Assembly (NCBI GenBank): GCA_013202335.1
Contig: JABMQR010000065.1
Span: 1-15,801 of the forward strand
Reading direction: 5' to 3'
Length of the DNA: 15,801 nucleotides
From: Bacteroidota bacterium
GTDB lineage: Bacteria > Spirochaetota > Spirochaetia > JABMQR01
Shown here: piece by piece, positions 1,273 to 15,656 of the stretch
Position numbering within the stretch: position 1 is the first letter of the stretch
How the letters are laid out: each line of letters begins with the position of its first letter
Translations under genes and position numbers: made by a program
The notes under the pieces: model-generated
What the model was told of the DNA's origin: nothing
Seen by the model: only the letters and a program-made list of their open reading frames with translations
Databases searched by the model: none

Positions 1273-1362
1273 TACATTTGTTATTCCGAAAACCGAAAAG
1301 TAAACACCTGCCGGAGCAGCGGGTCTATCAACATAAAAGATAATAGTTAAAGGAAATTAGCC

Positions 1363-2127: not shown

Positions 2128-2133
2128 GGATAT

Positions 2134-3084: not shown

Positions 3085-3190
3085 GCCAGCGGCCAGCCGG
3101 AGGCTGGAGGCTGGAGGCTGGAGGAAGCAGGAGACTGGAGACAGAAGGGGAAACGGGAAGCAGAAAGAAAGGAACTGGAGAGAGAAGATG
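3084..3190 (+). repeat. GGCCAGC/GGAGGCT tandem repeats and purine-rich tract
   Basis: Two copies of GGCCAGC (3084-3097) are followed by three perfect copies of GGAGGCT (3099-3119). Degenerate GGAGACT/GGAGACA units come next, then a run almost free of pyrimidines to about 3190. CCAGCC (3093-3098), three loop bases and GGCTGG (3102-3107) make a perfect 6-bp GC hairpin, and GGCTGG recurs at 3109-3114 and 3116-3121, so the left arm could pair with several copies. The repeat begins within the TAG stop of the reductase gene. It could be a weak terminator or structural element between two gene groups, or simply slippage-expanded intergenic DNA. No open reading frame with a credible start occupies the gap. 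Confidence 0.8.
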
Positions 3191-3251
3191 GAAGAGTTTT
3201 ATGGATAGAGTAGTTTTGGAAGATCGAAATATTTAAATACGAGGTGATTAT

Positions 3252-4193
3252 ATGAGTAATTTTAATTTTGAACCGTCAGAGTATATTCCTTATAGGGATA
3301 AAGAAGTTATGGATAGGGTTCGTAATATAAAAAGAGAGGATTTTGATAAACATCCTAATCCGGATTTTAAGATCATCATTCTTCCGGATGAAGAGACAAT
3401 GGCCTGGCAGCATATCATGAACTTCTTTTATACTATTAAGGAAGGAGCTGATAACAATCGGGACACAGTCTTGATTCTTGGGCAGCCGGATCCTGCCTAC
3501 AAACTACTTGCCTGGGCAATTAACAAGTTCAGGATAAATTGTAATAAACTGCATACCTTTAATATGGATGAGTATGCTGACCAGGACGGCAACACCGCAC
3601 CTGAAACCTGGCCCAAGGGTTTTCTCTACTCAGCGTTGAACAACTTCTGGTCACAAATTGATGAGGACCTCAGACCGCCGAGAAATCAGATACACGGACC
3701 GCAAACAAAGAATATTGAGTACTACGGTAAAATGATCGAAGATCTGGGGAATGCTGATTTGTGTCAGAGCGGCCCGGGCTGGACAGGTCATGTCGCCTTT
3801 GTTGAACCTGGTATACCCGGAAGTGAATTTGAGGGGACATTGGAAGAGTTTAAAGAGATGGGGCCGAGAATTGTAACCTTGAATCCCTTTACAATCGCCC
3901 AGAATTCTCTGCATGCAAGCTTCGGATATGCAGGTGATTTGGGGGCAGTTCCGCCCAAAGCCGCAACAATCGGCCCGGCTGAAATTATAAAGGCAAAAAA
4001 AAGAACCGACTGGAATGGTATAAGAGTTGATGGTTCGGAATGCTCCTGGGAGAAATTTGCAACCAGGCTGATTGCCCACGGACCAGTAACACCGTTGGTT
4101 CCAACATCGATCCATCAGCTGCTAAGAACAGATTTTTATGTAACTGAATTTCTTGCATCGGATATTGTGCCCCGGTTTGACAAGACTTTCTAA
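3252..4193 (+). CDS. NagB-like (glucosamine-6-phosphate deaminase/6-phosphogluconolactonase superfamily) protein
   Basis: A 313-residue protein, longer than classical NagB (about 266), with a GAGGTG ribosome-binding site before its ATG. NagB-type enzymes isomerise and deaminate glucosamine 6-phosphate to fructose 6-phosphate. The motif FNMDEY (103-108, with D106 the likely equivalent of NagB Asp72) and GPGWTGHVAFVEP (174-186; H180 and E185 match NagB His143 and Glu148) place it in the superfamily. The NagB motif reads GVGNDGHIAFNEP, so the ring-opening triad aspartate (Asp141) is a threonine here (T178). The usual short sugar-phosphate loop is also different. The reaction is therefore probably not standard GlcN6P deamination. 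It is the first gene of a five-gene operon with two UroD-like proteins; the next start is 13 bases after its stop. Cytoplasmic, with no signal peptide. Confidence 0.75.
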   Translation: MSNFNFEPSEYIPYRDKEVMDRVRNIKREDFDKHPNPDFKIIILPDEETMAWQHIMNFFYTIKEGADNNRDTVLILGQPDPAYKLLAWAINKFRINCNKLHTFNMDEYADQDGNTAPETWPKGFLYSALNNFWSQIDEDLRPPRNQIHGPQTKNIEYYGKMIEDLGNADLCQSGPGWTGHVAFVEPGIPGSEFEGTLEEFKEMGPRIVTLNPFTIAQNSLHASFGYAGDLGAVPPKAATIGPAEIIKAKKRTDWNGIRVDGSECSWEKFATRLIAHGPVTPLVPTSIHQLLRTDFYVTEFLASDIVPRFDKTF

Positions 4194-4205
4194 TAAGGAA
4201 TTAAC

Positions 4206-5273
4206 ATGACAAGTTTGGAAAGAGTCCAGGCAGCTTCAGAAAGAAAAAAGACAGATCGGCCCTGCAGCAGTCTGCGATGTACTCCGGAAGCATGGGAAGG
4301 TTTGCGTAAATATTTTTCCGTATCCACAAACCTCGAAGTCATGGATATTCTTGATATTGACTTGCGCTGGGTTGGAGCTGCTTTTACCGGACCTGAAGAA
4401 AAGAGTGCTGTTCCTATCGGCAGTGAAGGATATGATTTTTGGGGATGCCGGACCAGGGCAGTAAAAAACGAGTTTAATACCTACTATGAATTTGATTATC
4501 ACCCGTTACATAGTGCGGAGACGGTTGAGGATGTTCATGCCCACGACTGGCCAAGTCTGGATTGGTGGGATTATGGGTCTATTCGTGAACAGGCGGAGGC
4601 TCATGATGCAGCAGACAGACGGGCACACCTCTATTTTGCCGGGGGAACTTTCGAGACCCCCTGGTATATTCGCGGTATGGAAGCCTTCTTTATGGATATG
4701 TATATAAATCCGGAAATTGTTAAGGCAATCTGTACCCATGTTGGGGATTATTATGAAGACCGGGCATGGCGGGCCATTGATGCTGCCGGTGACTGTATTC
4801 ATATGATTGGTTCAGGCGGTGATATAGGAAGTCAGCGGGGAATGATGATAGCTCCGGATATGTGGAGAGAACACATTAAGCCCCATACCAAACGATTAAT
4901 CACTCCTTTCAGGAAAAAGGGATTCATGACCTTCTATCACTCCTGCGGTTCGCTGGTACCGGTAATCGATGACCTGATTGAAATCGGACTGCAGTTTCTG
5001 GATCCCATACAAATCACAGCTGAAGGCATGCAGCCGGAACCTCTGGCTGAACAGTTTGGCGACAGGCTCTCTTTCCACGGGGCTGTTGATGAAGTAGAGC
5101 TGCTGCCCCATGCAACCCCCTCGGAAGTGTATAAGGAAACTATTAGATTGATAGATGTACTTGGTAAATGTAATGGATTTATTGTATCCCCCAGTCATCA
5201 GGTGCAGGGTGATACTACTCCTGAAAACATTGAAGCAATATTTAAAGCGGTAAAAGACTATCCAAATCTGTAA
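4206..5273 (+). CDS. Uroporphyrinogen decarboxylase superfamily protein, HxCG (methyltransferase-like) type
   Basis: A 355-residue UroD-superfamily TIM barrel. It begins with the family opening MTSLERVQAA and carries YHSCGSLVPVIDDLIEIG (244-261). The H245-x-C247-G pattern is that of MtaA/CmuA-type corrinoid methyltransferases, where His and Cys bind zinc to activate a thiol; C322 or H331 (SPSHQVQG) could supply a further ligand. LDPIQITAEGM (265-275) and the late TPENIEAIF stretch are typical of this COG0407-like group. True haem UroD has different active-site residues, and no haem gene is nearby. No corrinoid protein or corrinoid-activating protein is in the window, so a classical methyl-transfer pathway is not shown. 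It lies 13 bases after the NagB-like gene (AAGGA site) and 22 bases before a second UroD-like gene. Fold high confidence, reaction unknown. Confidence 0.8.
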   Translation: MTSLERVQAASERKKTDRPCSSLRCTPEAWEGLRKYFSVSTNLEVMDILDIDLRWVGAAFTGPEEKSAVPIGSEGYDFWGCRTRAVKNEFNTYYEFDYHPLHSAETVEDVHAHDWPSLDWWDYGSIREQAEAHDAADRRAHLYFAGGTFETPWYIRGMEAFFMDMYINPEIVKAICTHVGDYYEDRAWRAIDAAGDCIHMIGSGGDIGSQRGMMIAPDMWREHIKPHTKRLITPFRKKGFMTFYHSCGSLVPVIDDLIEIGLQFLDPIQITAEGMQPEPLAEQFGDRLSFHGAVDEVELLPHATPSEVYKETIRLIDVLGKCNGFIVSPSHQVQGDTTPENIEAIFKAVKDYPNL

Positions 5274-5295
5274 AAAACAGGATTAAGGAGTAACT

Positions 5296-6402
5296 ATGAA
5301 TCCACGGGAAAGAGTTGAGGCTGTTTATGCAGGGGAAACACCTGATCAGGTACCGCTGCTGCTGGACTTAAGTCACTGGTACAAAAAGAATTTTCATAAG
5401 GAATTTGACCTTGCAGGATATCAGAATGTTGATGAAGGCCTAGTTAACCTGCATAAAGAAGTAGGTGCGGTTTGTTATTGTGAAATGGGAAGCTTTTACT
5501 CTCTGACCCCCGATTCTAAAGACATTTCATTTTCAACAGATACTAGAGATGGAATTTTTTCGACAAAGATTACCACACCCCTGGGAACTCTCTGCGAAGA
5601 GAGATCTTTCAGCGATAACAGTTATTCCTATAATATTAAAAAGCACCTCTTGGATTCAGCAGCAGATTTTAAGATTGTTGAATATTTAATGGATCATCTT
5701 ATCTGTACACCCAAATGGGATGAATATAAAAAATGGAGTGAGGCCTTAGGGGAGTACGGATATCCCTATACACAGCTACCGTACTCCGGTCTGGGATATC
5801 TTATCTCAAGAAACTTTGGTGTTGAACCGACGGTTTATGCTGATATGGATTATCCTGATGAGATGAAATCACTGACGGAATCAGTGAACAGCAGAAATCT
5901 GAAAATACTGGATACCATTATTGACGGTCCTTTCTCAACCCTGCTTATCAGTGATAATTTTGACAGTAATATACAGACAAAACAACTTTTTGATCGATAT
6001 TCACGTGATTACTATACAGAAGTAGCCAGAAGAATGCATGAAAAAGGAAAAACTCTGGCGGTTCATGTTGATGGAGAGATGCGGGGTGCAGTTGCCTGGA
6101 TGGCAGAGTGCGGGGTGGACTGTATCGATGCAGCAACTCCGGCACCCATGTTCTCTCTGACACCGGAAGAAGCCAGACGTCAGGCCGGTAATGACATTAT
6201 CCTCTCCGGCGGAATCCCGGCTACCGTTTTTGGTGCACAGGGAACTGATGCGGAGTTTGTGGAATCAGTAAAAAGCTGGCTCGAAATACGCCGGATATCG
6301 CCAAGATTATTTATGGCTGCCGGTGATCAGGTGCCTACCGATGCTCCTTTACACAGAATAAAGATACTGCCGGAGCTGGTTGCAGAGTATGGAAGATATT
6401 AG
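5296..6402 (+). CDS. Uroporphyrinogen decarboxylase superfamily protein, HVDG type
   Basis: A 368-residue second UroD-superfamily member with a strong AAGGAG site. It opens with MNPRERVEAVYAGETPDQVP, typical of the family. At the position of the HxCG motif it has H257-V-D259-G260, so the zinc-binding cysteine is missing. It goes on with ECGVDCIDAATPAPMF (271-286), LSGGIP (303-308) and GDQVPTDA (343-350), motifs of a separate, widespread and uncharacterised subgroup. The lost cysteine argues against thiol methylation; an acid in its place suggests other chemistry or another metal site (inference). It follows its HxCG relative by 22 bases, and the two are too different to be a recent duplication. 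They may act as partners or on successive steps. The next gene starts inside its last codons. Confidence 0.78.
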   Translation: MNPRERVEAVYAGETPDQVPLLLDLSHWYKKNFHKEFDLAGYQNVDEGLVNLHKEVGAVCYCEMGSFYSLTPDSKDISFSTDTRDGIFSTKITTPLGTLCEERSFSDNSYSYNIKKHLLDSAADFKIVEYLMDHLICTPKWDEYKKWSEALGEYGYPYTQLPYSGLGYLISRNFGVEPTVYADMDYPDEMKSLTESVNSRNLKILDTIIDGPFSTLLISDNFDSNIQTKQLFDRYSRDYYTEVARRMHEKGKTLAVHVDGEMRGAVAWMAECGVDCIDAATPAPMFSLTPEEARRQAGNDIILSGGIPATVFGAQGTDAEFVESVKSWLEIRRISPRLFMAAGDQVPTDAPLHRIKILPELVAEYGRY

Positions 6403-7405
6403 GAATAGATGGCACAAAGAACCTGGTCCCAGAATAGAGGGATCCGGGGATCTTGATATTTCAAAACTGCAGGCTCCTGGTATTGTCCGCATTCCTTCGG
6501 GAGGCTATCGACTTTTCTATACAGCAGTTGGTCCGGCAAAACCATATCCCAATTGTCAGGGCTATATCCTGAGTGCGGTGTCCGAAGATGGTCTTCTGTT
6601 TCACAAAGAACCGGGTATCAGGCTTGCACCACAACCAGATCTGGCTCATATGAGTCTGCGTATTATTGCCCCGTCTGTTACTCAATGTGATGACGGTCTG
6701 TGGCGTATGTACTTTGAATCACGGGGTTCAGTAGATGAACCTACGGTGATATGCAGTGCTGTATCAACAGATATGCTTCATTGGGAGCATGAAGACGGCA
6801 TCAGGTTACAGGGGTTTGAGGGTGTTCGCGCTCCCCGCTATCTTCGATTGGCTGATGGGCGGGGGCGGTTGTACTGTATTGCTGCTGAATCAGACTGTGG
6901 AGCAAAAAGAACTCAGGTCATCAGTGCTGTTGCTGCAGATGGCCTTAATTTTGTATTGGAATCCGGTTGTCGACTGCGAGATCGACAGTCCCCATATGAT
7001 AGTATGGGAATTACCGCAGCAGAAGTCGTACAATCTGGTGAATTAGGAGAAATCTGCAGTTGGACCATGTTCTATTCAGCATGGCAGGATGTACCTCAGG
7101 GAACAATAGTCCCAATGCATCCAAGCCAGGAAGACAGTCTCAGCGACGATTTCGCGGCAGCCTCTATTGCAAGTGATATGGCCGGCTATCGATCACGGAT
7201 ATTCAGATCCTATTCAAAGGATGGTCTGAAGTGGGAAGCGGGTGAGTGTGTGATTGAAGGCGTAGGATACGATTCTGATGATTTAGATGCGGTGCATGCC
7301 GAAGATATGTCGTTGATTAAAATAGGTGCTCACCGGTATCGGATGTATTATGCATCCTGTGACAAGCATGGGATATGGCGGATTTTAAGTGCTGTAACAG
7401 AATAA
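6389..7405 (+). CDS. Five-bladed beta-propeller, GH43/GH32-like
   Basis: A 338-residue protein built from five repeats, each with an (A)P-x-V/I start, a YRLFYTA-like strand and a SAVSEDGLLF-like strand: about 30-72, 94-132, 148-188, 210-282 (with an acidic insert near 232-262) and 304-336. This is the architecture of glycoside hydrolase clans with five-bladed propellers (GH43, GH32, GH130-type). Carboxylates of the kind such enzymes use are scattered through it, but I cannot identify a convincing catalytic triad, so it may be a glycosidase, a phosphorylase-like enzyme or a non-catalytic relative. No signal peptide is seen, so a cytoplasmic protein acting on an imported small glycoside is likely. 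The ATG at 6389 lies within the upstream UroD-like gene (14-base overlap); a TTG at 6380 in the same frame is an alternative start. Translational coupling is expected. Confidence 0.7.
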   Translation: MEDIRNRWHKEPGPRIEGSGDLDISKLQAPGIVRIPSGGYRLFYTAVGPAKPYPNCQGYILSAVSEDGLLFHKEPGIRLAPQPDLAHMSLRIIAPSVTQCDDGLWRMYFESRGSVDEPTVICSAVSTDMLHWEHEDGIRLQGFEGVRAPRYLRLADGRGRLYCIAAESDCGAKRTQVISAVAADGLNFVLESGCRLRDRQSPYDSMGITAAEVVQSGELGEICSWTMFYSAWQDVPQGTIVPMHPSQEDSLSDDFAAASIASDMAGYRSRIFRSYSKDGLKWEAGECVIEGVGYDSDDLDAVHAEDMSLIKIGAHRYRMYYASCDKHGIWRILSAVTE

Positions 7406-7446
7406 CTGGATCGATAAATATTGGGAAAAATGGTAAGGGTATAGAT

Positions 7447-8385
7447 ATGAAAAAACTTGATCTAAAATCAACCGGGAAAAGATTTCCGGAAGCAATTATG
7501 GCAACATGCTGCGTTCCATGGGGAGAAGACTATTCTCTTGATGAGGGCATGTTCAGAAGGTTGATTCGCTTAACCCTTGAACACACTCCGTATGTATATC
7601 TGTTTGGAACGGCCGGTGAAGGGTATGCCATACAGGGAGATCTCTATAAAAAAGTAGTTTCGGTATTTGCCGATGAAGTTGGTAAAAACAACGGTTTTCC
7701 TATGGTAGGAGTTATCTCTTCATCACTGCAGGAGATGCATGAGAAAATTGAAACGGCAAAAGCATTAGGAATTAGATTGTTCCAAATTTCATTGCCCTGC
7801 TGGGATATTCCGACAGGAGACGAAATAGATACCTTTTTTAACTCTCTGCTGTCAAAACATACAGACTGTCAGTTTATGCATTACAACAGGAGACTTCAGG
7901 GACGGGTTCTCGGCGTTGATGAATACACAAGACTAAGCGAAGCACACCCAAATCTGATTGGAGCGAAAATATCTTCAGACTCATTAACCTATATTAACAG
8001 CTTGATTACAAGTGGTCTTCCACTCCAGTGGTTCTTTACCACACCTGGATTTGCTTATGCATCAATGTATAAGCAATGTGGATTGTTAATATCTGCAGCC
8101 AGTATCAACTGGGATATGGCAAAACGCTATTTTCAGGCCGGCTTACAGAAGGATTATGCAGCTCTTATGGGCTTTCAGGAAAATCTCATTGGTCTGGTGA
8201 AAAAATTAATAGTGATAATGCCCCCGGGTGCACACATGGATGGATCGTACGATAAATTATTTCCGAAAATGTATATTCCGGATTTTCCTCTTCGGCTTTT
8301 ACCGCCGTACGTAGGCGCGGAAGAAGAAACCTTTAGTAGATTGAAGGATATTCTGTTTAAGTATTATCCGGAATGGATGCATTGA
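7447..8385 (+). CDS. Dihydrodipicolinate synthase/N-acetylneuraminate lyase family protein
   Basis: A 312-residue class I aldolase of the DapA/NanA family. These enzymes form a Schiff base with pyruvate or another 2-oxo acid and add or release an aldehyde. Visible residues are the GTAGE loop (54-58; GTTGE in DapA), Y146 in FMHYNRR and the Schiff-base lysine K174 in IGAKISS. The tail after residue 220, including MPPGAHMDGSYDKLF, is unlike DapA, so this is probably a catabolic aldolase or dehydratase rather than the lysine-pathway enzyme (inference). The ATG at 7447 follows GGTAAGGG; the same frame is open to an ATG at 7375, but that would overlap the propeller gene and add residues not typical of the family. 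It is the last gene of the operon, 41 bases after the propeller, and converges on the exporter gene. Confidence 0.85.
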   Translation: MKKLDLKSTGKRFPEAIMATCCVPWGEDYSLDEGMFRRLIRLTLEHTPYVYLFGTAGEGYAIQGDLYKKVVSVFADEVGKNNGFPMVGVISSSLQEMHEKIETAKALGIRLFQISLPCWDIPTGDEIDTFFNSLLSKHTDCQFMHYNRRLQGRVLGVDEYTRLSEAHPNLIGAKISSDSLTYINSLITSGLPLQWFFTTPGFAYASMYKQCGLLISAASINWDMAKRYFQAGLQKDYAALMGFQENLIGLVKKLIVIMPPGAHMDGSYDKLFPKMYIPDFPLRLLPPYVGAEEETFSRLKDILFKYYPEWMH

Positions 8386-8419
8386 GAAGATAATCAAATC
8401 TCAAACAGTTTGTTTTTTT
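8382..8419 (+). terminator. Possible weak terminator at the end of the UroD/DapA-like operon
   Basis: TTGAGA (8382-8387) pairs with TCTCAA (8399-8404). A short CAAA-CAG-TTTG hairpin (8402-8412) then runs directly into seven T residues (8413-8419). The stems are AT-rich and short, and the element overlaps the end of the converging exporter gene, so this is only a plausible intrinsic terminator for plus-strand transcription. Confidence 0.3.
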
Positions 8420-9021
8420 ACAAAAGGCCATAGAGCCATCCCGATCAGTATTACACCTACTGCTGCATTCATCCAGGTGAGAATAGAGGAGGATAGTACT
8501 GCTTTTATTCCGCTTCCAAGGGCAGCTACCAGAGTTTGACAAATAAGGGTTGAAAGAGCTGCTCCCATACCAAATCGATACATCTCAGATTTTCTCAGGT
8601 TTTTTTCAGTCATCCTTACTGTGCAGACTCCACCCCAAAATACAATTGTAAGAGGATTGGCTGCGGTCATGATTAATCCCTTTAGGAAAGCATCGGAAAC
8701 CGATCCGGTGGAGATCAGGGAGATTGAGGGGATTACTTTGATATTGAAGGCTTCAAGAAGGATCAAGATACCGAAAAAGCCAATAAAGATAGCCCCGGTA
8801 ACCTTTAAAATATATTTTACCCGCTCTTTGTTCAGGAAAGAAGTAACTCCGGTTATCGCAAGGAAAATAAATGCGGCATCTGCGAGAGTGACTCCCAGAA
8901 CAGCAGGGAATGCTCCTGCAAAACCGACTGTTCCTGCTAGAGAGAAAATATATACTGAAATTGGTCCGACTGCAGCCTGCAGCACCAAACCAAATGAAAA
9001 TCCTGATAGTACCTGTCTCAC
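8401..9021 (-). CDS. LysE/RhtB-family exporter
   Basis: A 206-residue hydrophobic protein with about six membrane segments. The N-terminal GLVLQAAVGPISVYIFSLAG matches the LysE/RhtB signature region, and a central LKVTGAIFIGFFGILIL is also typical. Family members export amino acids or small metabolites across the inner membrane. The start is GTG at 9021-9019 with AAGGAT upstream; no ATG start fits better. It is transcribed away from the aldehyde-dehydrogenase operon, with which it shares a 120-base control region, and its end almost meets the DapA-like gene (15-base gap). The shared region makes co-regulation with the organic-anion module possible, for example for removal of a toxic amine or amino acid product, but LysE proteins also occur as unrelated neighbours. 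Substrate unknown. Confidence 0.82.
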   Translation of the reverse strand: MRQVLSGFSFGLVLQAAVGPISVYIFSLAGTVGFAGAFPAVLGVTLADAAFIFLAITGVTSFLNKERVKYILKVTGAIFIGFFGILILLEAFNIKVIPSISLISTGSVSDAFLKGLIMTAANPLTIVFWGGVCTVRMTEKNLRKSEMYRFGMGAALSTLICQTLVAALGSGIKAVLSSSILTWMNAAVGVILIGMALWPFVKKQTV

Positions 9022-9071
9022 GTAGTTATCCTTTTCGGCACTCTACCAGTAAAACAAAATCTTGGGAATAC

Positions 9072-9100
9072 TGGACAATACCCCACACCTCTGCTATAGT
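9072..9100 (+). promoter_or_regulatory. Predicted sigma-70 promoter for the aldehyde-dehydrogenase operon
   Basis: TGGACA (9072-9077), a 17-base spacer and TATAGT (9095-9100), with TG one base before the -10 (TGCTATAGT, an extended -10). Five of six matches at each hexamer make this the best promoter seen in the window. Transcription would start near 9107, inside the palindrome that follows. Confidence 0.65.
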
Positions 9101-9120
9101 TACTTACACAAAGTAAGTAA
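9100..9120. promoter_or_regulatory. Perfect palindrome, candidate repressor operator
   Basis: TTACTTAC, five bases ACAAA, then GTAAGTAA: perfect 8-bp arms. It overlaps the last base of the -10 box and the expected transcription start and ends 21 bases before the GTG start. This placement suits a repressor of the GntR, TetR or similar type, which would block the dehydrogenase operon and possibly the divergent exporter. No regulator gene is in the window. Confidence 0.6.
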
Positions 9121-9141
9121 TAAGGGTTTCGTGGAGGGAAT

Positions 9142-10578
9142 GTGTCAAAAAAACAGGAAATGAGTGTGAGTGAACAAGTGGTTTCTGAAATGATAAGTGC
9201 ACTGGTGGAAAAGGCTCGTAAAGCCCAGGCCTTGATCGCGTCATATACACAGGAACAAATTGATGAAGTTTGCGTCGCGGCTGGATGGGAAGTGTATAAG
9301 GATGATAACATCTCAGAACTTGCAAAAATGGCTGTGGATGAGACTGGAATGGGAAATGTTCAGGATAAATTTAAAAAGCACAAAGGTAAAATCCTTGGAG
9401 TCCTTAAAGATTTGAAGGGATCGAAATCTGTTGGTTTAATTGATTATGATGAAAGCAAAGGAATCAGTAAATACGGAAAACCGGTAGGTGTGGTCGGGGC
9501 GTTAACTCCGGTTACCAATCCAACAGCAACCCCGGGGAGCAATGCCCTGAGCATCCTGAAAGGGCGGAATGCAGTTATTTTTGCACCCCACCCGAAATCA
9601 AAGAATTGTTCAATACGAAGTGTTGAGATGATGCGGGACGGTTTAAAAGCTGTTGGCGCTCCTGAAGACCTCATTCAAATTGTTCCGGAACCAAGCATTC
9701 CTGCTACTCAGGAACTGATGAGACAGGTAGACCTGGTTTTGGCAACCGGCGGCGGAGCAATGGTGAAATCAGCATATTCAAGCGGAACACCGGCTTATGG
9801 TGTGGGTCCGGGTAATGCTGTACAGATTGTTGCAGAGGATGCTGACGTTGCAGCTGCTGCAGCAAAAATCACTTTAAGTAAGTGTTTTGATAATGCAACA
9901 AGTTGTTCAAGTGAGAACTCTGTTGTTGTCCATGCCTCCGTATACGAAGAATTTATGACGCTCCTTGAAAAAGAGGGTGGCTGGCTGGTTTCCGGCAATG
10001 ATCGTGAAACATTAAAAAACTGGATGTGGCAGAAGAACAGGAATGGAAATGTAAGTTTATATCCCGGAATTATTGCTAAAGATGCAGCAGCTATAGCTGC
10101 TCAGGCCGGCTTAAATATCCCTGAAAATAAGAGAATGCTGGTGGTCGAAGGAATAATGCCTCTTGAGGAAGATCCCTTTGCAGAAGAAAAACTGAGTCCG
10201 GTTCTTACCATCTGGAAATACAATAATTTTGACGAAGGTTATGAGATTCTTAAAAGACTGACTGACAACTGCGGTACCGGCCACTCCTGTGGAATTCATA
10301 CAAAAAACAAATCATATGTAGAAAAGCTGGCTATGAATATCAGAACCAGCCGTATATTGGTTAATCAGCCGCAGGCACCGGGTAATGGCGGTAACTTTTG
10401 GAACGGAATGCCGTCCACTGTTACACTTGGCTGCGGAACATGGGGTGGTAACATCACCACAGAAAATATCACCTATAAACATTTTTTAAATATCACCTGG
10501 GTATCGGAGCTCATTCCGGAGGACAAACCAACGGATGAAGAGATTTTCGGTGACCTGTGGGCAAAAGCGGGGAAATAA
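9142..10578 (+). CDS. sauS: CoA-acylating aldehyde dehydrogenase, probable sulfoacetaldehyde dehydrogenase
   Basis: A 478-residue acylating aldehyde dehydrogenase that interconverts an aldehyde + CoA + NAD(P)+ and acyl-CoA + NAD(P)H. It shows GVVGALTPVTNPTATP (116-131), the cofactor-region motif ATGGGAMVKSAYSSGTPAYG (201-220) with VGPGNA after it, and the nucleophile C255 in FDNATSCSSENS. The NATSCSSEN form is what I associate with acylating sulfoacetaldehyde dehydrogenases (SauS, sulfoacetate pathway); EutE/PduP enzymes have NNLPC here. It heads an operon with a two-subunit acyl-CoA synthetase and an anion symporter, which supports reduction of sulfoacetyl-CoA to sulfoacetaldehyde. The GTG start has GGAGGG three bases upstream, a short spacing; an ATG at 9160 is the alternative. 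The next start is one base after the stop. Acylating family near certain, sulfonate substrate moderately likely; acetaldehyde or another short aldehyde remains possible. Confidence 0.75.
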   Translation: MSKKQEMSVSEQVVSEMISALVEKARKAQALIASYTQEQIDEVCVAAGWEVYKDDNISELAKMAVDETGMGNVQDKFKKHKGKILGVLKDLKGSKSVGLIDYDESKGISKYGKPVGVVGALTPVTNPTATPGSNALSILKGRNAVIFAPHPKSKNCSIRSVEMMRDGLKAVGAPEDLIQIVPEPSIPATQELMRQVDLVLATGGGAMVKSAYSSGTPAYGVGPGNAVQIVAEDADVAAAAAKITLSKCFDNATSCSSENSVVVHASVYEEFMTLLEKEGGWLVSGNDRETLKNWMWQKNRNGNVSLYPGIIAKDAAAIAAQAGLNIPENKRMLVVEGIMPLEEDPFAEEKLSPVLTIWKYNNFDEGYEILKRLTDNCGTGHSCGIHTKNKSYVEKLAMNIRTSRILVNQPQAPGNGGNFWNGMPSTVTLGCGTWGGNITTENITYKHFLNITWVSELIPEDKPTDEEIFGDLWAKAGK

Positions 10579-10579
10579 G

Positions 10580-11701
10580 ATGAAACTTTTTGAGCATCAG
10601 GCTAAGAAAGTCTTTCGGGAGGCAGGTATCCCGACACCACGTGGTGTTTTAGCGACAAATATTGAAGAAGTAAAAGCAGCTTTGGCTGAAATCGGGCTGC
10701 CTTGCGTTCTTAAAAGCCAGGTTCTTACCGGGGGACGGGGTAAGGCCGGGTTAATTAAAGTTGTTACTGCTGAAGCTGAGGCGCTGGCTGCAGCTGAACT
10801 CCTGTTTTCTTCTGAACATCAGGTAAAGACTCTTCTCATAGAAGAGGCCGTGGATATCAGCAGAGAGATATATATATCAGTTACCGCTGATCCAGTAGAA
10901 GCAACAGCTTTGATTCTTGCCAGTGCCGATGGTGGTGTGGAGATAGAGGTTCTTGCCGAAACCAGTCCGGAAAAAATAATCCGGGAATTTGTCGATATTA
11001 ACATCGGACTGCAGTCATATCAGGCAGCTGATATTGCTTATCGTCTGAGTACCAACCCGAATGAAGCAAAGCAGATCCAGAAAATTCTTATGTCATTGTA
11101 TAAGGTTTTTTCCCGGCATGATGCAGAGCTCGCGGAAATAAATCCACTGTTTGTTACAAAGTCAGGAGATGTGGTCGCCGGTGACGGGAAGCTGATGATT
11201 GATGAAAATTCAATGCATCGTCAGCCGGATTTTGAAAGAACCCGGGAATATTACGATAGTGATATGGAGTTCGAAGCGGCTCAGGAGGGAATTCCGTATC
11301 TCCAGTTTGATGGAGATATCAGTCTGATGTGTGCCGGTGCGGGACTGACTACAACGGTTTACGACCTTATAAATTACGAGGGAGGAACTATTGCAAACTA
11401 CCTGGAATTCGGTGGACCAAACTATCGGAAGGCAGTTCGTGCTATGGAACTTTGTCTGCGGAATGATTCCAAAGTAATTCTGATTGTTACCTTTGGAACT
11501 ATTGCCAGAGCAGATGTTATGGCCGAAGGAATCGTCGATGCAATCCGTAGATTGCGCCCCGATCGCCCAATTGTTGTATGTATTCGTGGAACAAACGAGG
11601 AACAGGCAGTAAAAACATTAAAAGAAGCGGGACTTGATCCGCTTTACGATACCGAAGAAGCAGTGCGGAAAGCAGTTGAACTCTGCAGGACGGGGGCATA
11701 G
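10580..11701 (+). CDS. ADP-forming acyl-CoA synthetase, beta (SucC-like) subunit
   Basis: A 373-residue homologue of succinyl-CoA synthetase beta (388 in E. coli). The ATP-grasp domain opens with MKLFEHQAKKVFREAGIPTP. It has K45 (VLKSQ), GGRGKAG (51-57), and the magnesium-site residues E186-x-N188-P (AEINPLF) and D202 (AGDGKL). The C-terminal flavodoxin-like domain carries YLEFGGPNY (274-282), where SucC has VGGGA. The enzyme would couple ATP use to acyl-CoA formation via a phosphohistidine on the alpha subunit. It starts at ATG 10580, one base after the dehydrogenase stop, with GGGGAAATAAG as its site, and ends one base before the alpha-subunit start: strict translational coupling. Since the neighbours are SauS-like and a transporter, not citric acid cycle genes, the acid is probably sulfoacetate or a similar short anion (inference). 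Confidence 0.83.
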   Translation: MKLFEHQAKKVFREAGIPTPRGVLATNIEEVKAALAEIGLPCVLKSQVLTGGRGKAGLIKVVTAEAEALAAAELLFSSEHQVKTLLIEEAVDISREIYISVTADPVEATALILASADGGVEIEVLAETSPEKIIREFVDINIGLQSYQAADIAYRLSTNPNEAKQIQKILMSLYKVFSRHDAELAEINPLFVTKSGDVVAGDGKLMIDENSMHRQPDFERTREYYDSDMEFEAAQEGIPYLQFDGDISLMCAGAGLTTTVYDLINYEGGTIANYLEFGGPNYRKAVRAMELCLRNDSKVILIVTFGTIARADVMAEGIVDAIRRLRPDRPIVVCIRGTNEEQAVKTLKEAGLDPLYDTEEAVRKAVELCRTGA

Positions 11702-11702
11702 T

Positions 11703-12596
11703 ATGAGTATTTTTATTACAGAAAATACCCGGGTTCTGGTTCAGGGAATAACCGGTAAAGAGGGCAGCTTCTGGACAAAGCACATGATAGAACTTGGAAC
11801 AAAAGTTGTTGCCGGGGTTACTCCCGGTAAAGAGGGACAAGTCGTTGAGGAGTGTCCGGTCTATCATACAGTCAGGCGTGCGGTCGCAGAAAATGATATT
11901 GATGCGGCGATGCTTTTTGTTCCCCCACGGTTTACCAAAGATGCAGTTTACGAAGCACTCGACAGCGGCATCAAAAAGATCGTTACCATAGCAGATGGGA
12001 TTCCTCTTCATGAGATGGTACAGATTCGTGCCGCAGCAAAGTCCTGCGATGCAATGGTGATTGGCGGCAACACTTCCGGCTGTATAAGTCCGGGGGTTGC
12101 CATGATGGGTATGTTTCCCTACTGGATTGAACGGGTTTATAAAAAGGGTCGCATAGGGATAATGACGCGAAGCGGCTCCCTGACAAATGAAGTTACCGCA
12201 ATGGTGGTACGGGCCGGCTTTGGCGTCAGCTCACTTATTGGTATTGGTGGAGATCCTGTTCCTGGTACACGATTTGCAGAGATGCTTCCTTTGTATGAAG
12301 CAGATATCGAAACAGATGCACTGGTAATTATTGGGGAGCTTGGCGGAACTATGGAGGAAGAGGTCGCTGAAGCGATCCATGCAGGCGTGTTTACCAAACC
12401 CGTAGCCGCATTTCTTGGCGGCAGAACAGCCCCAAAGGGTAAACGTATGGGTCATGCCGGGGCTATAGTTACTGGTGGAAGAGGTACTGTAGAGGGTAAG
12501 ATTAAGGCACTTGAAGCTGCTGGAGCAGTTGTTGCTGAAAGACCCAGTCGGGTTGGAGATCTTTTGAAAGAGAAACTCATGCAGGTAGAGATATAA
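11703..12596 (+). CDS. ADP-forming acyl-CoA synthetase, alpha (SucD-like) subunit
   Basis: A 297-residue homologue of succinyl-CoA synthetase alpha (289 in E. coli). It opens MSIFITENTRVLVQGITGKEG, the CoA-binding Rossmann domain, followed by GVTPGKEG. The phosphorylated histidine is H251 in KRMGHAGAI, and E212 (GELGG) matches the glutamate that holds the phosphohistidine. TRSGSLTNE (155-163) replaces SRSGTLTYE. The strongly conserved GPNCPG loop near the active site is GGNTSG (121-126), a clear departure from true SucD that fits a changed acyl substrate. The start ATG 11703 is one base after the beta-subunit stop; the frame is open further upstream, but those starts lie in the beta gene and lack family similarity. 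The symporter start follows 12 bases after its stop. Confidence 0.83.
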   Translation: MSIFITENTRVLVQGITGKEGSFWTKHMIELGTKVVAGVTPGKEGQVVEECPVYHTVRRAVAENDIDAAMLFVPPRFTKDAVYEALDSGIKKIVTIADGIPLHEMVQIRAAAKSCDAMVIGGNTSGCISPGVAMMGMFPYWIERVYKKGRIGIMTRSGSLTNEVTAMVVRAGFGVSSLIGIGGDPVPGTRFAEMLPLYEADIETDALVIIGELGGTMEEEVAEAIHAGVFTKPVAAFLGGRTAPKGKRMGHAGAIVTGGRGTVEGKIKALEAAGAVVAERPSRVGDLLKEKLMQVEI

Positions 12597-12608
12597 AAGG
12601 GGAATTTG

Positions 12609-14087
12609 ATGGGTAAAGGTGAGAAATTGATAAAAGGTGAAAAACCAGCAGATTTAAAGAAGTTGATTATTCTTATAGCCGCATTTGCCGTTATGATTAT
12701 AATCAGGAGCCTGCCTCTCCCCGATTCCATACGAATCGCCGGTGATGCTGAGTTAACAGTAGCCGGCCAGACAGCTCTGGGAGTTCTGGTTTTTGCCCTG
12801 ATTCTCTGGATGACGGAAGCCATACCTTTTCACGTAACCGGGTTGATGAGTATTATACTTCTTGCACTATTTAAGACAGATACTTACAAGAATATTGTTT
12901 CAATTGGGTTTGGGAATAACATCGTAACTTTTTTTATTGGTGTACTGGTTCTTTCAGCATTTATAACAACATCAGGTCTTGGTAAACGGATAGGAATGCT
13001 GATTCTCTCAAAAACGGGAAACAATACAAAGAGTATTTTATTTGGTTTTATCTTAACAGGGACCCTGCTTTCAATGTGGGTAACAAATATGGCTGTAGCA
13101 GCCATGCTGATGCCTTTGGCCGTCGGGGTATTGGAAGAAGAGGGAATAAAACCGCTTAAAAGCAATTTTGGCAGGGCACTGCTTATAGCTTGTGCCTGGG
13201 GATCAATAATTGGCGGAATAGGAACACCTTCCGGTGCGGGTCCAAACCCTTTGGCCATCGGTTTCATAAAAGAGATGGCAGGAATAGATATTACTTTTGG
13301 TAAATGGATGATGTTTGGCGTCCCAGCTGCATTGCTTATGGTTCCGGCTTCTTGGTTAGTACTTATTATCTTTTTCAAACCTGAGATGTCCCATCTATCC
13401 AAAACGAAGCAGGAGATGAAGGAAGAGTTCAAGGCTTTACCCGGTATGAGCAGAACTGAAATTGTAACCCTTATTCTCTTTTTTATTACCGTTATTCTCT
13501 GGTTAACTTCACCGATCATTGGAAAGTGGTTAGGGATCAGCATCCCCATATCTATGCCGGTTCTTCTCACATCATGTTTCTTTTTTATTCCAAAAGTTGG
13601 TGGTACTCCCTGGAAAAAAATAGAACCGGAAATCTCATGGAGCGGCATCATTCTTATTCTGTCAGGGATCTCACTTGGAATGATGCTCTATTATACCGGC
13701 GTTGCAAAATGGCTCTCTCTGGTACTTCTATCGGGGATAGGGACTCTTCCATCAGTAGTTATGGTATTTGTTATCGTGTTAATGATTTCATTGTTAAAGA
13801 TTATTTTTTCCAGTAATACAGTCACTGCAACCATCATTATTCCCATTATGATTGAGTTAGCATCCTCACTTGGATTGCCGGTTCTCTCTGTTGCGATTCC
13901 GGCCTCCCTGGTTGCCTCTTTGGCTTTTATACTTGTTACCTCATCTCCAACAAATGTTATTCCCTATTCTGCCGGGTACTTCTCTATTGCTGATTTTGCG
14001 AAATCAGGATTGTTGATGACACTTTTTGGTTCGATAATAATGACATTTGTAGTATTTGAAATTGGTTCAATGACGGGACTGTATTAA
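12609..14087 (+). CDS. DASS/SLC13-family anion:sodium symporter
   Basis: A 492-residue inner-membrane transporter with about 11-12 hydrophobic segments. Family signatures include LWMTEAIPFHVTGLM (66-80), the first binding-hairpin motif WVTNMA (157-162, variant of SNT), GTPSGAGPNPLA (205-216), the second motif FSSNTVTATIIIP (400-412) and SSPTNVIPYS (445-454). DASS proteins move dicarboxylates, citrate or sulfate with sodium ions. In this operon the cargo is most likely the acid that the adjacent synthetase activates; sulfoacetate is a dianion of similar size to a C4 dicarboxylate (inference). The first binding motif lacks the usual serine (VTN for SNT), which may reflect the substrate. The ATG at 12609 has AGGGGA upstream; a TTG three bases earlier is less likely. 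A nested inverted repeat lies shortly after its stop. Confidence 0.86.
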   Translation: MGKGEKLIKGEKPADLKKLIILIAAFAVMIIIRSLPLPDSIRIAGDAELTVAGQTALGVLVFALILWMTEAIPFHVTGLMSIILLALFKTDTYKNIVSIGFGNNIVTFFIGVLVLSAFITTSGLGKRIGMLILSKTGNNTKSILFGFILTGTLLSMWVTNMAVAAMLMPLAVGVLEEEGIKPLKSNFGRALLIACAWGSIIGGIGTPSGAGPNPLAIGFIKEMAGIDITFGKWMMFGVPAALLMVPASWLVLIIFFKPEMSHLSKTKQEMKEEFKALPGMSRTEIVTLILFFITVILWLTSPIIGKWLGISIPISMPVLLTSCFFFIPKVGGTPWKKIEPEISWSGIILILSGISLGMMLYYTGVAKWLSLVLLSGIGTLPSVVMVFVIVLMISLLKIIFSSNTVTATIIIPIMIELASSLGLPVLSVAIPASLVASLAFILVTSSPTNVIPYSAGYFSIADFAKSGLLMTLFGSIIMTFVVFEIGSMTGLY

Positions 14088-14112
14088 CGTATCAACTAAC
14101 TACCGAATTATT

Positions 14113-14144
14113 AAACAGTAACAATACTTGTTTTGTTCCTGTTT
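14113..14144. repeat. Nested inverted repeat after the symporter gene
   Basis: AAACAG (14113-14118) pairs with CTGTTT (14139-14144), and inside it AACAA (14120-14124), TAC and TTGTT (14128-14132) form a second perfect hairpin. AT-rich DNA without a clean T-run follows. It may end transcription of the symporter operon weakly or be an operator for the next promoter. Confidence 0.4.
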
Positions 14145-14177
14145 ATTTAATTGGCTCACCCCTTATGTGATATTTTC

Positions 14178-14186
14178 TGGTATAAT
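14178..14186 (+). promoter_or_regulatory. Extended -10 promoter for the steroid-reductase-like gene
   Basis: TGGTATAAT is a full consensus extended -10 (TGnTATAAT). TTGGCT at 14151-14156 is too far upstream (24 bases) to be a normal -35 box, but extended -10 promoters can do without one. Transcription would start near 14193, about 24 bases before the gene's ATG. Confidence 0.55.
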
Positions 14187-14216
14187 CCAAAATAAAAAAG
14201 GATATGGTACTGGTAC

Positions 14217-14969
14217 ATGGGGTCGTTCTATTCCATTTTGTTACTGCTTGAATTCTGTCTGGCACTGCCAATTTTCATCCTCCTTTTCTTTATCAAAGCA
14301 CCGTATGGGAAATTTCTCCAAAGGGGATGGGGACCATCAATAAAAGCAACTACTGCCTGGATTTTAATGGAATTACCCGCATTTATGATTCCTCTCATAT
14401 TTTTTCTCTTTTCAGGAAAAATAACCAACCCTGTCTATCTGGTTTTCCTGGGAATCTGGCAGCTCCACTATATCCAGAGAACATTTGTCTATCCCGTAAT
14501 ATTAAATAAAAGTTCGCATAAAGTTCCCTTTCTTATCATACTCTTCTCCCTGATTTTTAACATTATCAATGGATGGGTAAATGGTTATGGTATTTTTATT
14601 AAGCTGGATACTGGAACAGAATGGCTTTATTCCCCCCGTTTCATCATCGGATGCCTTATATTCCTTTTGGGATTTGTGATAAATCTGCATTCCGATTATA
14701 TTCTGAGAAATCTCAGGGCTCCAGGAGAGACTGAATATAAAATCCCAAATAAGGGACTCTTTAAATATGTTAGTAGTCCTCACTATCTTGGGGAAATACT
14801 TGAGTGGGGTGGTTGGGCGCTGCTTACCTGGTCATTAGCAGGCACAGCTTTTTTAGTCTTTACTATGGCGAATCTTGTACCCCGTGCAGTTACCAGCCTG
14901 GAGTGGTATAGGACAAATTTTCCTGAGTATCCTGCGAAGCGAAAGGCAATAATCCCGTTTGTATTTTGA
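14217..14969 (+). CDS. Steroid 5-alpha-reductase (3-oxo-5-alpha-steroid 4-dehydrogenase) family membrane protein
   Basis: A 250-residue integral membrane protein with about seven hydrophobic segments, the length of human SRD5A1/2 (about 255). The similarity runs end to end: APYGKF (28-33), MELPAF (51-56; E52 matches catalytic Glu57 of SRD5A2), HYIQRTFVYP (84-93; Y85 matches Tyr91), SPRFIIG, INLHSD (155-160), ILRNLRAPGETEYKIP (162-177), YLGEILEW (190-197) and the ending WYRTNFPEYPAKRKAIIPFVF. These enzymes use NADPH to reduce the 4,5 double bond of 3-oxo-steroids. Bacterial members are known, including some acting on bile-acid or steroid intermediates; others may act on unrelated lipids. It has its own promoter and a rather distant AAGGA site (about 14 bases). 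It ends 26 bases from the converging toxin gene. Family assignment strong, natural substrate unknown. Confidence 0.85.
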   Translation: MGSFYSILLLLEFCLALPIFILLFFIKAPYGKFLQRGWGPSIKATTAWILMELPAFMIPLIFFLFSGKITNPVYLVFLGIWQLHYIQRTFVYPVILNKSSHKVPFLIILFSLIFNIINGWVNGYGIFIKLDTGTEWLYSPRFIIGCLIFLLGFVINLHSDYILRNLRAPGETEYKIPNKGLFKYVSSPHYLGEILEWGGWALLTWSLAGTAFLVFTMANLVPRAVTSLEWYRTNFPEYPAKRKAIIPFVF

Positions 14970-14995: not shown

Positions 14996-15397
14996 TTATG
15001 TAAAAGCAGCTAGAACTCTTTTGTCAAAACTGTGTAAAGGCAATTGCAGTCTCAAAGAGAGTTCTACATAGGCCGCATCATAGTAGCTAAGTTTTTTATT
15101 TACAGCTATTTCCCTTATGCGTAAACGTGCAGCAGAATCCGGGATAGGATCTGTTACTATCGGTAAATCTGCTATATCCATCTCAATCCCCTGAAGTTCA
15201 TCAAAAGAAATTCTTTTTCTGTTTAGCGCTGTAACTAAAGTATTACCTACTTCATACCAAAAAAGGAAAGGTACAAAAATCTGTCCATTACCGGCAATCA
15301 GATCTTCCAGAATTTTTTCTATCTGTTCACCGGTTTCTTCCTGCATAAAGAGCGCCATGGCTGCTGAAGTGTCCAGAACAAGTGCTTGAATACTCAT
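14996..15397 (-). CDS. vapC: PIN-domain toxin, VapC-like
   Basis: A 133-residue PIN-domain ribonuclease. The four acidic residues that bind magnesium are present: D9 (LVLDTSA), E49 (FWYEVGN), D107 (SYYDAAY) and D125 (SFDKRVL). VapC toxins cleave specific RNAs and stop growth when not bound by antitoxin. The frame is open up to 15436, but the ATG at 15397-15395 is chosen because it has AGAGGTAGT just upstream, begins with the typical PIN strand and lies one base after the antitoxin stop, giving translational coupling. The partner is a Phd/YefM-type antitoxin, a common pairing for PIN toxins. Its 3' end converges on the steroid-reductase-like gene with a 26-base gap and no clear terminator. Confidence 0.87.
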   Translation of the reverse strand: MSIQALVLDTSAAMALFMQEETGEQIEKILEDLIAGNGQIFVPFLFWYEVGNTLVTALNRKRISFDELQGIEMDIADLPIVTDPIPDSAARLRIREIAVNKKLSYYDAAYVELSLRLQLPLHSFDKRVLAAFT

Positions 15398-15398
15398 A

Positions 15399-15656
15399 CT
15401 ACCTCTGACCCTCATTGCGAAAACTCTGTATTTCATCAGTAGTAATTGTTTCTCTTTTACTAATCATATACCGGCGGGCGGCAATCCTTTTTAATGCTGT
15501 TTGACCGGCTTCTTCCCGGTAAAACCCTTCAGGGGCGAGTATTGCTACCGGTTTTCCCCGACGTGTTACGTGAATAACGTTACCCTTTTCTACCTCTTTT
15601 AAAAGCTGGCTAAAATGGGTTTTTGCTTCGAATGCACCTATTTCTCGACTACTCAT
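15399..15656 (-). CDS. Phd/YefM-family antitoxin
   Basis: An 85-residue type II antitoxin. The N-terminal DNA-binding dimer domain shows EIGAFEAKTHFSQLLKEVEKG (5-25) followed by VIHVTRRGKPVAILAP (27-42), the hallmark of Phd/YefM proteins. The charged C-terminal tail (about 50-85) would wrap the PIN toxin. It is expected to bind its own promoter with the toxin as co-repressor; a perfect 15-base palindrome sits 20 bases upstream of its ATG. The ATG at 15656-15654 has only a weak purine stretch before it. The gene ends one base before the toxin start. Confidence 0.87.
   Translation of the reverse strand: MSSREIGAFEAKTHFSQLLKEVEKGNVIHVTRRGKPVAILAPEGFYREEAGQTALKRIAARRYMISKRETITTDEIQSFRNEGQR

What the first reader, a model, noticed from the sequence alone, without database searches (positions are those of the whole stretch)
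9142..14087. Compact sulfoacetate-type uptake and activation module using a SucCD-like ligase
A SauS-like acylating dehydrogenase (NATSCSSEN motif), both subunits of an ADP-forming acyl-CoA synthetase and a DASS symporter are translationally coupled (one-, one- and 12-base gaps). In the known sulfoacetate route of Cupriavidus the activation is by an AMP-forming ligase (SauT) with an MFS-type importer (SauU). Here both parts are replaced by energy-saving alternatives, as expected of an anaerobe. The enzyme using sulfoacetaldehyde (a reductase plus isethionate sulfite-lyase, or Xsc) is not in the window.
Basis: partly seen in the sequence, partly recalled or inferred. Interest (0 to 1): 0.72.

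Follow-up and report, generated by a model that had tools for sequence, protein, structure and literature searches.

The report
Sulfoacetate-forming end of sulfoquinovose breakdown
These four genes most likely finish the breakdown of the plant sulfosugar sulfoquinovose in a spirochaete by turning its leftover two-carbon piece into sulfoacetate, making ATP and exporting it; this is a known pathway, probably running in the opposite direction to the one first proposed.

Summary
In detail: an acylating aldehyde dehydrogenase (9142-10578), both subunits of a SucCD-type ligase (10580-11701, 11703-12596) and a DASS carrier (12609-14087) form one tight unit. The enzymes look like sulfoacetaldehyde/sulfoacetate enzymes, but ADP-forming activation is not new: SauS-SauCD (Bilophila) and SqwD-SqwKL (sulfo-transketolase variant) are in print. 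The direction is probably the reverse of that proposed. Of 19 spirochaete loci found with this module, 17 hold sqwG, sqwH and sqwI of sulfoquinovose (SQ) degradation on the same stretch, one has them on another contig, and one showed sqwI only. Trees of dehydrogenase, ligase and carrier place the window among them. A perfect palindrome (9100-9120) sits at the promoter; the same element marks SQ operons of relatives (29 sites, in 15 of 20 loci; none in 23 control loci), also some SQ genes on other contigs. So the module probably belongs to an SQ regulon although no other SQ gene was recognised in the window. dsrA is missing from 11 of 11 spirochaete relatives tested and present in 8 of 8 tested Desulfovibrionaceae-side genomes. 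Best reading: sulfoacetaldehyde to sulfoacetyl-CoA to sulfoacetate plus ATP, then export. New member of a known kind; possibly unreported: the operator and DASS as sulfoacetate carrier.

The parts
9072..9100 (+). promoter-like site TGGACA-17-TATAGT, sharing one base with the operator-like palindrome
   Evidence: highest score (10 of 12) of 11 promoter-like sites in 8900-14300; 10.5 are expected in shuffles, so the match alone is weak; its position against the palindrome is the support
9100..9120 (.). operator-like palindrome TTACTTAC-ACAAA-GTAAGTAA, shared with SQ (sulfo-transketolase) operons of spirochaete relatives; possibly bound by a ROK-family regulator encoded elsewhere (inferred)
   Evidence: (only match in the window at up to 3 mismatches; mean 0.06 in shuffles, 12 of 200 shuffles with at least one)
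9142..10578 (+). CoA-acylating sulfoacetaldehyde dehydrogenase (SqwD/SauS type)
10580..11701 (+). ADP-forming acyl-CoA ligase, beta (ATP-grasp, SucC-like) subunit; one of SqwK/SqwL
11703..12596 (+). ADP-forming acyl-CoA ligase, alpha (CoA-binding, phosphohistidine, SucD-like) subunit; the other of SqwK/SqwL
12609..14087 (+). DASS (NadC/SLC13-type) carrier, probably for sulfoacetate, probably working as exporter or exchanger here (inferred)

Best explanation
The unit is the oxidative end of the sulfo-transketolase pathway of sulfoquinovose (SQ) degradation, in a spirochaete near Sphaerochaetaceae. Sulfoacetaldehyde, released by the sulfofructose transketolase SqwGH, is oxidised with NAD+ and CoA to sulfoacetyl-CoA by the dehydrogenase (SqwD). 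The two-subunit ligase (SqwKL) turns this into sulfoacetate and makes ATP from ADP and phosphate through its phosphohistidine. The DASS carrier lets sulfoacetate out. The unit has its own promoter with an operator of the SQ regulon at the start site, so it can be induced together with sqwGHI, the SQ isomerase, the importer and the sulfoquinovosidase even when these lie elsewhere in the genome. Shown: the genes, their kinship, the linkage in relatives and the shared element. Inferred: substrate, direction, export by DASS, a ROK protein as the binding factor, and presence of sqwGHI elsewhere in this genome.
For: Linkage: of 19 spirochaete loci with the four-gene module, 17 hold sqwG, sqwH and sqwI on the same stretch; L002 starts at a contig end and its genome has sqwGHI on another contig; L040 showed sqwI only. 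Some of the 19 are close kin of each other. Trees: dehydrogenase with L001 and L003 (100/99), inside 9 rows whose 8 others are sulfo-TK-linked (96/97); ligase with L003 99/95; DASS with L003 99/96, then L082 100/99. Operator-like element at up to 2 mismatches: 45 hits (29 merged sites, in 15 of 20 sulfo-TK loci) against 0.2 expected, 0 in 23 control loci of equal total length, 1 exact in the window. Genome-wide in 8 relatives: 8 exact matches, 7 on sulfo-TK contigs and 1 before an SqvD-type isomerase on another contig. Direction: dsrA over cut-off in 0 of 11 spirochaete and 8 of 8 Desulfovibrionaceae-side genomes tested; SqwI-type isomerase in 11 of 11 and 1 of 8. In print: SqwD/SqwKL, named also for Spirochaetes.
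Against: No sqwG, sqwH, sqwI, sqvB, GH31 or ROK relative was found in the 15.8 kb window (tblastn), and no genome of the organism is held, so the rest of the pathway is not shown. The dehydrogenase misses the NF047625 cut-off (541.8 against 600). Its best match by sequence among solved structures is an acetylating succinate-semialdehyde dehydrogenase. DASS carriers mostly import (recalled), and in two Desulfovibrionaceae-side loci a DASS lies beside the same trio, where import is likely. The element is missing at up to 2 mismatches from 5 of the 20 sulfo-TK loci. At 1 mismatch, the whole-genome total (31 places in 8 genomes) barely exceeds the backward control (24); 2 of the 5 fetched places off the SQ contigs precede unrelated genes. 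In the ligase tree the Desulfovibrionaceae-side branch has only 91/88 support. The contexts of the two closest proteins (91%, P0001, P0002) could not be read.
Confidence: 0.82

Rival explanations
1. One reading: sulfoacetate is imported by DASS, activated by the ligase at the cost of ATP and reduced to sulfoacetaldehyde, which feeds a reductase plus isethionate sulfite-lyase, or Xsc (Bilophila-type SauSCD).
For: Eleven Desulfovibrionaceae-side loci have the same trio without sqwGHI (dehydrogenase 50-58% identical, L103 64%), with TTT (7) or DASS (2) carriers; the reactions are reversible (established chemistry); no sulfo-TK gene is in the window.
Against: In the dehydrogenase tree the window lies in a starred clade of sulfo-TK-linked rows, outside the starred 10-row Desulfovibrionaceae-side clade (L103 is unresolved); ligase and carrier trees agree. 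It carries the SQ-operon element. dsrA in 0 of 11 spirochaete relatives tested.
Confidence: 0.1
2. Same reactions in the same direction, but sulfoacetaldehyde comes from another source such as taurine, and the sulfo-TK genes are absent from this genome.
For: No sqwGHI in the window; SauS-like paralogues beside class III aminotransferase-like genes occur in other spirochaetes (L041, L044).
Against: The shared SQ-operon element and the nearest relatives' sulfo-TK linkage. The window's own class III aminotransferase is cut by the window edge and ends 7.9 kb before the module, and no such element lies near it.
Confidence: 0.05
3. Another acid: acetaldehyde, succinate semialdehyde or 3-sulfopropionaldehyde (HpfX/HpfYZ type) oxidation with the same chemistry.
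For: Superfamily overlap; best sequence match among solved structures is an acetylating succinate-semialdehyde dehydrogenase, 340.9 bits; HpfX/HpfYZ do the same chemistry on a C3 sulfonate (PMC11489063, passages).
Against: NCBIfam: SauS 541.8 bits against AdhE 438.2, acetylating acetaldehyde dehydrogenase TIGR02518 371.9 and succinic semialdehyde 60.8; ligase loop TFGT[IV] instead of E. coli IFGGI in all 31 module rows; linkage to a pathway that yields sulfoacetaldehyde. No HpfX or HpfYZ sequence was compared.
Confidence: 0.03

Closest known systems
SqwD-SqwKL, oxidative sulfo-transketolase variant (Chu et al. 2023; known here through passages in PMC12890257, PMC11659671, PMC11489063; the paper itself was not held)
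   Same: CoA-acylating sulfoacetaldehyde dehydrogenase plus ADP-forming two-subunit ligase; reported for Spirochaetes, Firmicutes and Tenericutes; most relatives of the window lie beside sqwGHI
   Different: In the window the unit stands alone with its own promoter-like site and operator-like element; its carrier is DASS, whereas PMC11659671 names SqwE as the exporter. No published SqwD or SqwKL sequence was compared.
SauS-SauCD of Bilophila wadsworthia and Desulfovibrionaceae-side loci found here (Liu X. et al. 2023; known through passages in PMC12890257 and PMC12625764; paper not held)
   Same: Same three enzymes, dehydrogenase 50-58% identical (L103 64%); same chemistry
   Different: Works in the reductive direction; carrier TTT in 7 of 11 loci; dsrA in 8 of 8 tested genomes; separate branch; no SQ element found. 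No sequence named as Bilophila was compared.
SauSTU of Cupriavidus-type aerobes (Caballeronia, Sulfitobacter and Ruegeria plasmid loci stand in here)
   Same: Homologous dehydrogenase with the same ATSCSSEN motif
   Different: AMP-binding ligase gene next to it, MFS or TTT carrier, separate clade
HpfX-HpfYZ (3-sulfopropionate) of Enterococcus gilvus (PMC11489063, passages)
   Same: Same enzyme pair and ATP yield on a C3 sulfonate
   Different: Linked to HpfG/HpfD; its ligase was reported inactive on sulfoacetate; sequences not compared here

Membership tests
SqwD-SqwKL oxidative sulfo-TK unit | CoA-acylating aldehyde dehydrogenase of the clade found beside sqwGHI | tested here: met
SqwD-SqwKL oxidative sulfo-TK unit | adjacent two-subunit ADP-forming ligase with phosphohistidine | tested here: met
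SqwD-SqwKL oxidative sulfo-TK unit | sqwGHI in the same genome | not testable with these tools
   not in the window; no genome held. Of 19 related spirochaete modules, 18 have sqwGHI in the genome and one showed sqwI only
SqwD-SqwKL oxidative sulfo-TK unit | shares the operator-like element of SQ operons (my criterion, not a published one) | tested here: met
SqwD-SqwKL oxidative sulfo-TK unit | enzyme activity on sulfoacetaldehyde/sulfoacetate | not testable with these tools
   needs purified proteins
Bilophila-type SauSCD | groups with SauSCD-type loci of sulfite reducers | tested here: not met
   (ligase branch support only 91/88)
Bilophila-type SauSCD | isethionate sulfite-lyase and dissimilatory sulfite reductase in the genome | tested here: inconclusive
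   own genome not held; dsrA in 0 of 11 spirochaete relatives tested; PFL-like enzymes in 6 of 6 genomes searched (G001-G006), not typed
Bilophila-type SauSCD | TTT carrier SauXYZ | tested here: not met
   carrier is DASS
Cupriavidus-type SauSTU | AMP-forming SauT and MFS SauU | tested here: not met
NCBIfam SauS equivalog NF047625 | score at or above 600 bits | tested here: not met
   541.8 bits; for comparison two sulfo-TK relatives 537 and 540, two Desulfovibrionaceae-side 468 and 495, two AMP-type 684 and 800
Acetaldehyde dehydrogenases (EutE, AdhE) | groups with EutE or AdhE | tested here: not met
   (one sequence each; their branches are long)

The most novel reading that the evidence does not exclude
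Spirochaetes hold a scattered SQ regulon together with one operator (TTACTTA-n7-TAAGTAA, probably read by a ROK repressor), which lets the sulfoacetate-forming unit travel apart from sqwGHI, and in it a DASS carrier, of a family known mainly for uptake, serves as the sulfoacetate exporter or exchanger.
Probability: 0.5. Interest if true: 0.4.

Novelty: new member of a known kind. Interest (0 to 1): 0.27.

Why it matters
Sulfoquinovose is made at an estimated 10 billion tons a year (PMC12890257, start of abstract), and the C2 sulfonate that fermenters excrete decides which sulfite reducers can feed on it. A rumen study reports Sphaerochaetaceae transcribing the isethionate-forming sulfo-transketolase pathway (PMC13219744, abstract and passages); the window and its relatives suggest that spirochaetes of the same neighbourhood use the sulfoacetate-forming version. 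The operator-like element offers a simple way to find scattered SQ genes of spirochaetes in fragmentary genomes.

Tried and rejected
Rejected: uptake for sulfonate respiration as the main reading (trees, element, dsrA). Rejected: succinyl-CoA synthetase (137/372 and 135/289 identities to E. coli SucC and SucD; changed loop). Rejected as main: acetaldehyde or succinate-semialdehyde oxidation.

Led nowhere: own-genome searches (none held); the context of the 91% relatives P0001 and P0002 (no tool reaches their contigs); HpfYZ-type relatives on plasmids (the 25 of 103 records listed are succinate or malate ligases and Azospirillum-type pairs, not followed); the E. raffinosus locus L099 (no ligase relative beside the dehydrogenase); typing of PFL-like enzymes; only repeated the 26 genomes. 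Until I read PMC9594981 my scripts called the DUF4867 proteins SqvD; they are SqvB, and the fucose-isomerase-like proteins are SqvD. MhpF and PduP were not put into the tree. Of 19 spirochaete genomes with the module, 11 were searched for dsrA and SqwI; of 11 Desulfovibrionaceae-side genomes with the trio, 8 were.

Weak points of the element test: the pattern was taken from the window, L003 and L082, so those are not independent; the other loci are. Overlapping hits were merged. Of the 31 places with up to 1 mismatch, 20 lie on sulfo-TK contigs, 1 before SqvD in G480, and 10 on other contigs; of those 10 I fetched 5: three precede a KduI-like cupin gene that also sits in sulfo-TK clusters (L130, L131, L133), two precede unrelated genes (L132, L134).
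Full report
WHAT IS THERE. Searches confirm four collinear plus-strand genes: a 478-residue acylating aldehyde dehydrogenase (9142-10578, GTG start; an in-frame ATG lies 18 bases on), a 373-residue SucC-like subunit (10580-11701), a 297-residue SucD-like subunit (11703-12596) and a DASS carrier (12609-14087). Gaps are 1, 1 and 12 bases. Family scans give SauS NF047625 as the best NCBIfam model for the dehydrogenase (541.8 bits, under its 600-bit cut-off; next AdhE 438.2), succinate-CoA ligase models for the two subunits, and the DASS model for the carrier. No tRNA gene and no Rfam family at gathering score was found in the window.

WHAT IS ALREADY IN PRINT. Two ADP-forming versions are known. 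A 2026 review (PMC12890257) and three further papers (PMC11489063, PMC12625764, PMC11659671; [quoted passage not shown] the review names Spirochaetes, Firmicutes and Tenericutes for the latter. A 2022 review (PMC9594981, passages) already noted such dehydrogenase and ligase genes in sulfo-TK clusters. The two primary papers (Liu X. 2023, Chu 2023) were not held. PMC12625764 also reports sauSCD and sauST clusters with a TTT carrier. A 2026 survey reports frequent SQ monooxygenase (sulfo-SMO) clusters, a different SQ route, in Spirochaetota (PMC13372026, passages).

RELATIVES AND THEIR NEIGHBOURS. A scan of named genomes found 7 loci: three spirochaetes at 74% (L001-L003), three Desulfovibrionaceae-side loci at 57-58% (L004-L006) and a short fragment (L007). 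A sample of 392 genomes of the phylum (19 with a match at 1e-130), the families of G002 and G003 (6 of 26 and 2 of 139 at 1e-170) and 149 genomes of the family of G005 (13 at 1e-120) gave more. Stretches of up to 20 kb were fetched and laid out with tblastn. Nineteen spirochaete loci have the dehydrogenase with both ligase subunits, and all 19 also have the DASS carrier. In 17 of them sqwG, sqwH (split transketolase) and sqwI (RpiB-type isomerase) lie on the same stretch, often with a GH31 glycosidase, a DUF4867 protein (SqvB), a KduI-like cupin or a ROK regulator (families checked on examples). L040 has sqwI, but no sqwG/H was found there or in two flanking stretches (L080, L081). L002 begins at a contig end; its genome has sqwGHI on another contig. 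Several of these loci are close kin (for example L038 and L039). In 11 Desulfovibrionaceae-side loci the trio lies without sqwGHI, with a TTT carrier in 7 (L103-L109), a DASS carrier in 2 (L004, L005) and no carrier seen in 2 that reach a contig end (L006, L110). Eleven further loci have the dehydrogenase without the ligase (L035 at a contig end, L041-L048, L111, L112).

TREES. Dehydrogenase, 49 rows: all ligase-linked rows plus the contig-end row L035 form one clade (100/100). The AMP-type SauS (Caballeronia, Sulfitobacter and Ruegeria plasmids), EutE, AdhE and the rest lie outside. The window groups with L001 and L003 (100/99), inside nine rows of which the other eight are sulfo-TK-linked (96/97). 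Ten Desulfovibrionaceae-side rows form their own clade (100/100); L103 is unresolved beside the sulfo-TK rows. Ligase, both subunits joined, 32 rows: window with L003 (99/95), then L082 (97/86), while L001 lies elsewhere; the Desulfovibrionaceae-side branch has 91/88, not starred. DASS, 22 rows: window with L003 (99/96), then L082 (100/99); the two Desulfovibrionaceae-side carriers are split off (100/100). L003 is named Sphaerochaetaceae, and L082 came from the search of L003's family. The outgroup branches are long, so the root is unsure.

LIGASE. Against E. coli SucC and SucD the window shows 137/372 and 135/289 identities. The E. coli stretch NIFGGI reads VTFGTI in the window; FGT replaces FGG in all 31 module rows. 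From memory, this loop is near the succinate carboxylate in known structures; that was not tested. The phosphohistidine context GHAG is kept in all rows.

OPERATOR-LIKE ELEMENT. A perfect inverted repeat, TTACTTAC-ACAAA-GTAAGTAA, lies at 9100-9120, sharing a base with the best promoter-like site (TGGACA-17-TATAGT, 9072-9100). It is the only match in the window with up to 3 mismatches (mean 0.06 in shuffles; 12 of 200 shuffles had at least one). L003 has the same element 21 bases before sqwD, and L082 has it before both sqwD and sqwG. A scan with up to 2 mismatches gave 45 hits (29 merged sites, in 15 of 20 loci; none in L029, L034, L036, L038, L040) in 20 sulfo-TK loci (342 kb; 0.2 expected), 0 hits in 23 control loci (345 kb; 0.2 expected), and the one window site. 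Of the 29 sites, 24 lie within 40 bases of the next ORF start, among them sqwG, sqwD, the cupin gene, the GH31 gene, an ABC binding-protein gene (L077) and a TTT binding-protein gene (L003); a fucose-isomerase-like gene, which PMC9594981 describes as SqvD, follows a site at 101 bases in L003. Over 8 whole relative genomes there are 8 exact matches: 7 on sulfo-TK contigs and 1 on another contig of G480, 81 bases before an SqvD-type isomerase gene (77% identity over the 69 residues left before the contig end). With 1 mismatch there are 31 places: 20 on sulfo-TK contigs, the one before SqvD, and 10 on other contigs. Five of those 10 were fetched: three precede the cupin gene that sits in sulfo-TK clusters elsewhere (G405, G407, G408), two precede unrelated genes (L132, L134). 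The backward control gives 24, so the total count alone proves little; the placement does. A ROK protein is the obvious candidate binder because its gene lies beside many of these sites; binding is inferred. The library held no paper with sulfoquinovose and 'ROK family', and the one paper with sulfoquinovose, operator and palindrom* is an E. coli survey (listing only).

DIRECTION. dsrA passes its cut-off in 8 of 8 Desulfovibrionaceae-side genomes and 0 of 11 spirochaete genomes tested; a weak partial match in G480 is far below it. A close SqwI relative (1e-40) is in 11 of 11 spirochaetes and 1 of 8 of the others (G552). So the spirochaete relatives have the source of sulfoacetaldehyde but not the respiratory sink of sulfite. 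This favours oxidation to sulfoacetate with ATP formation, then export. DASS as the exporter is inferred from its presence in all 19 spirochaete loci with dehydrogenase and ligase; DASS carriers mostly import (recalled), and in L004 and L005 the same family probably imports sulfoacetate, which at least supports the substrate. No paper in the library holds both sulfoacetate and DASS as whole words.

VERDICT. The module is real and correctly drawn. It is most likely the SqwDKL end of sulfo-TK SQ degradation, run towards sulfoacetate, in a spirochaete close to Sphaerochaetaceae. It is a new member of a known kind. What seems unreported, within the searches made, is the element that ties scattered SQ genes together and the DASS carrier in place of SqwE.

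Noticed in passing
window 1-8385 (+): A run of eight same-strand genes: class III aminotransferase (cut by the window edge), HpaI-type aldolase, aldo/keto reductase, NagB-like, two genes of which the first resembles MtaA/CmuA methyltransferases and both look UroD-like by eye, a 341-residue protein without Pfam match, and a DapA-like aldolase. It looks like a separate cluster; no relative of these genes was found in the SQ loci at 1e-15.
   Followed up: partly
window 8401-9021 (-): A LysE-family exporter is divergent from the module; the palindrome begins 79 bases from its start, so it could share the control. No LysE relative was found in L003 or L082.
   Followed up: no
window 14996-15656 (-): PIN-domain protein with a short upstream partner, toxin-antitoxin (VapBC) like by eye.
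   Followed up: no
L041 and L044: SauS-like dehydrogenases (55% and 50%) beside class III aminotransferase-like genes and without SucCD in other spirochaetes; possibly a taurine or aminosulfonate route.
   Followed up: no
L102 (Mycolicibacterium chubuense plasmid) and hit H2 (Nocardioides JS614 plasmid): Relatives at 46-48% on plasmids; from memory these strains grow on ethene by way of coenzyme M conjugates, so the enzyme may act on a sulfonated aldehyde there too.
   Followed up: no
G552 (L104 and C10:117190-117654): A Desulfovibrionaceae-side genome that has both the SauSCD-type trio with TTT and an SqwI-like isomerase (63%).
   Followed up: no
L003:5346-8455: A TTT carrier preceded by the operator-like element in the Sphaerochaetaceae relative (binding-protein homologue, 84%, on contig C129 of G480); it may be the SQ or sulfonate importer of this lineage instead of the ABC importer.
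   Followed up: partly
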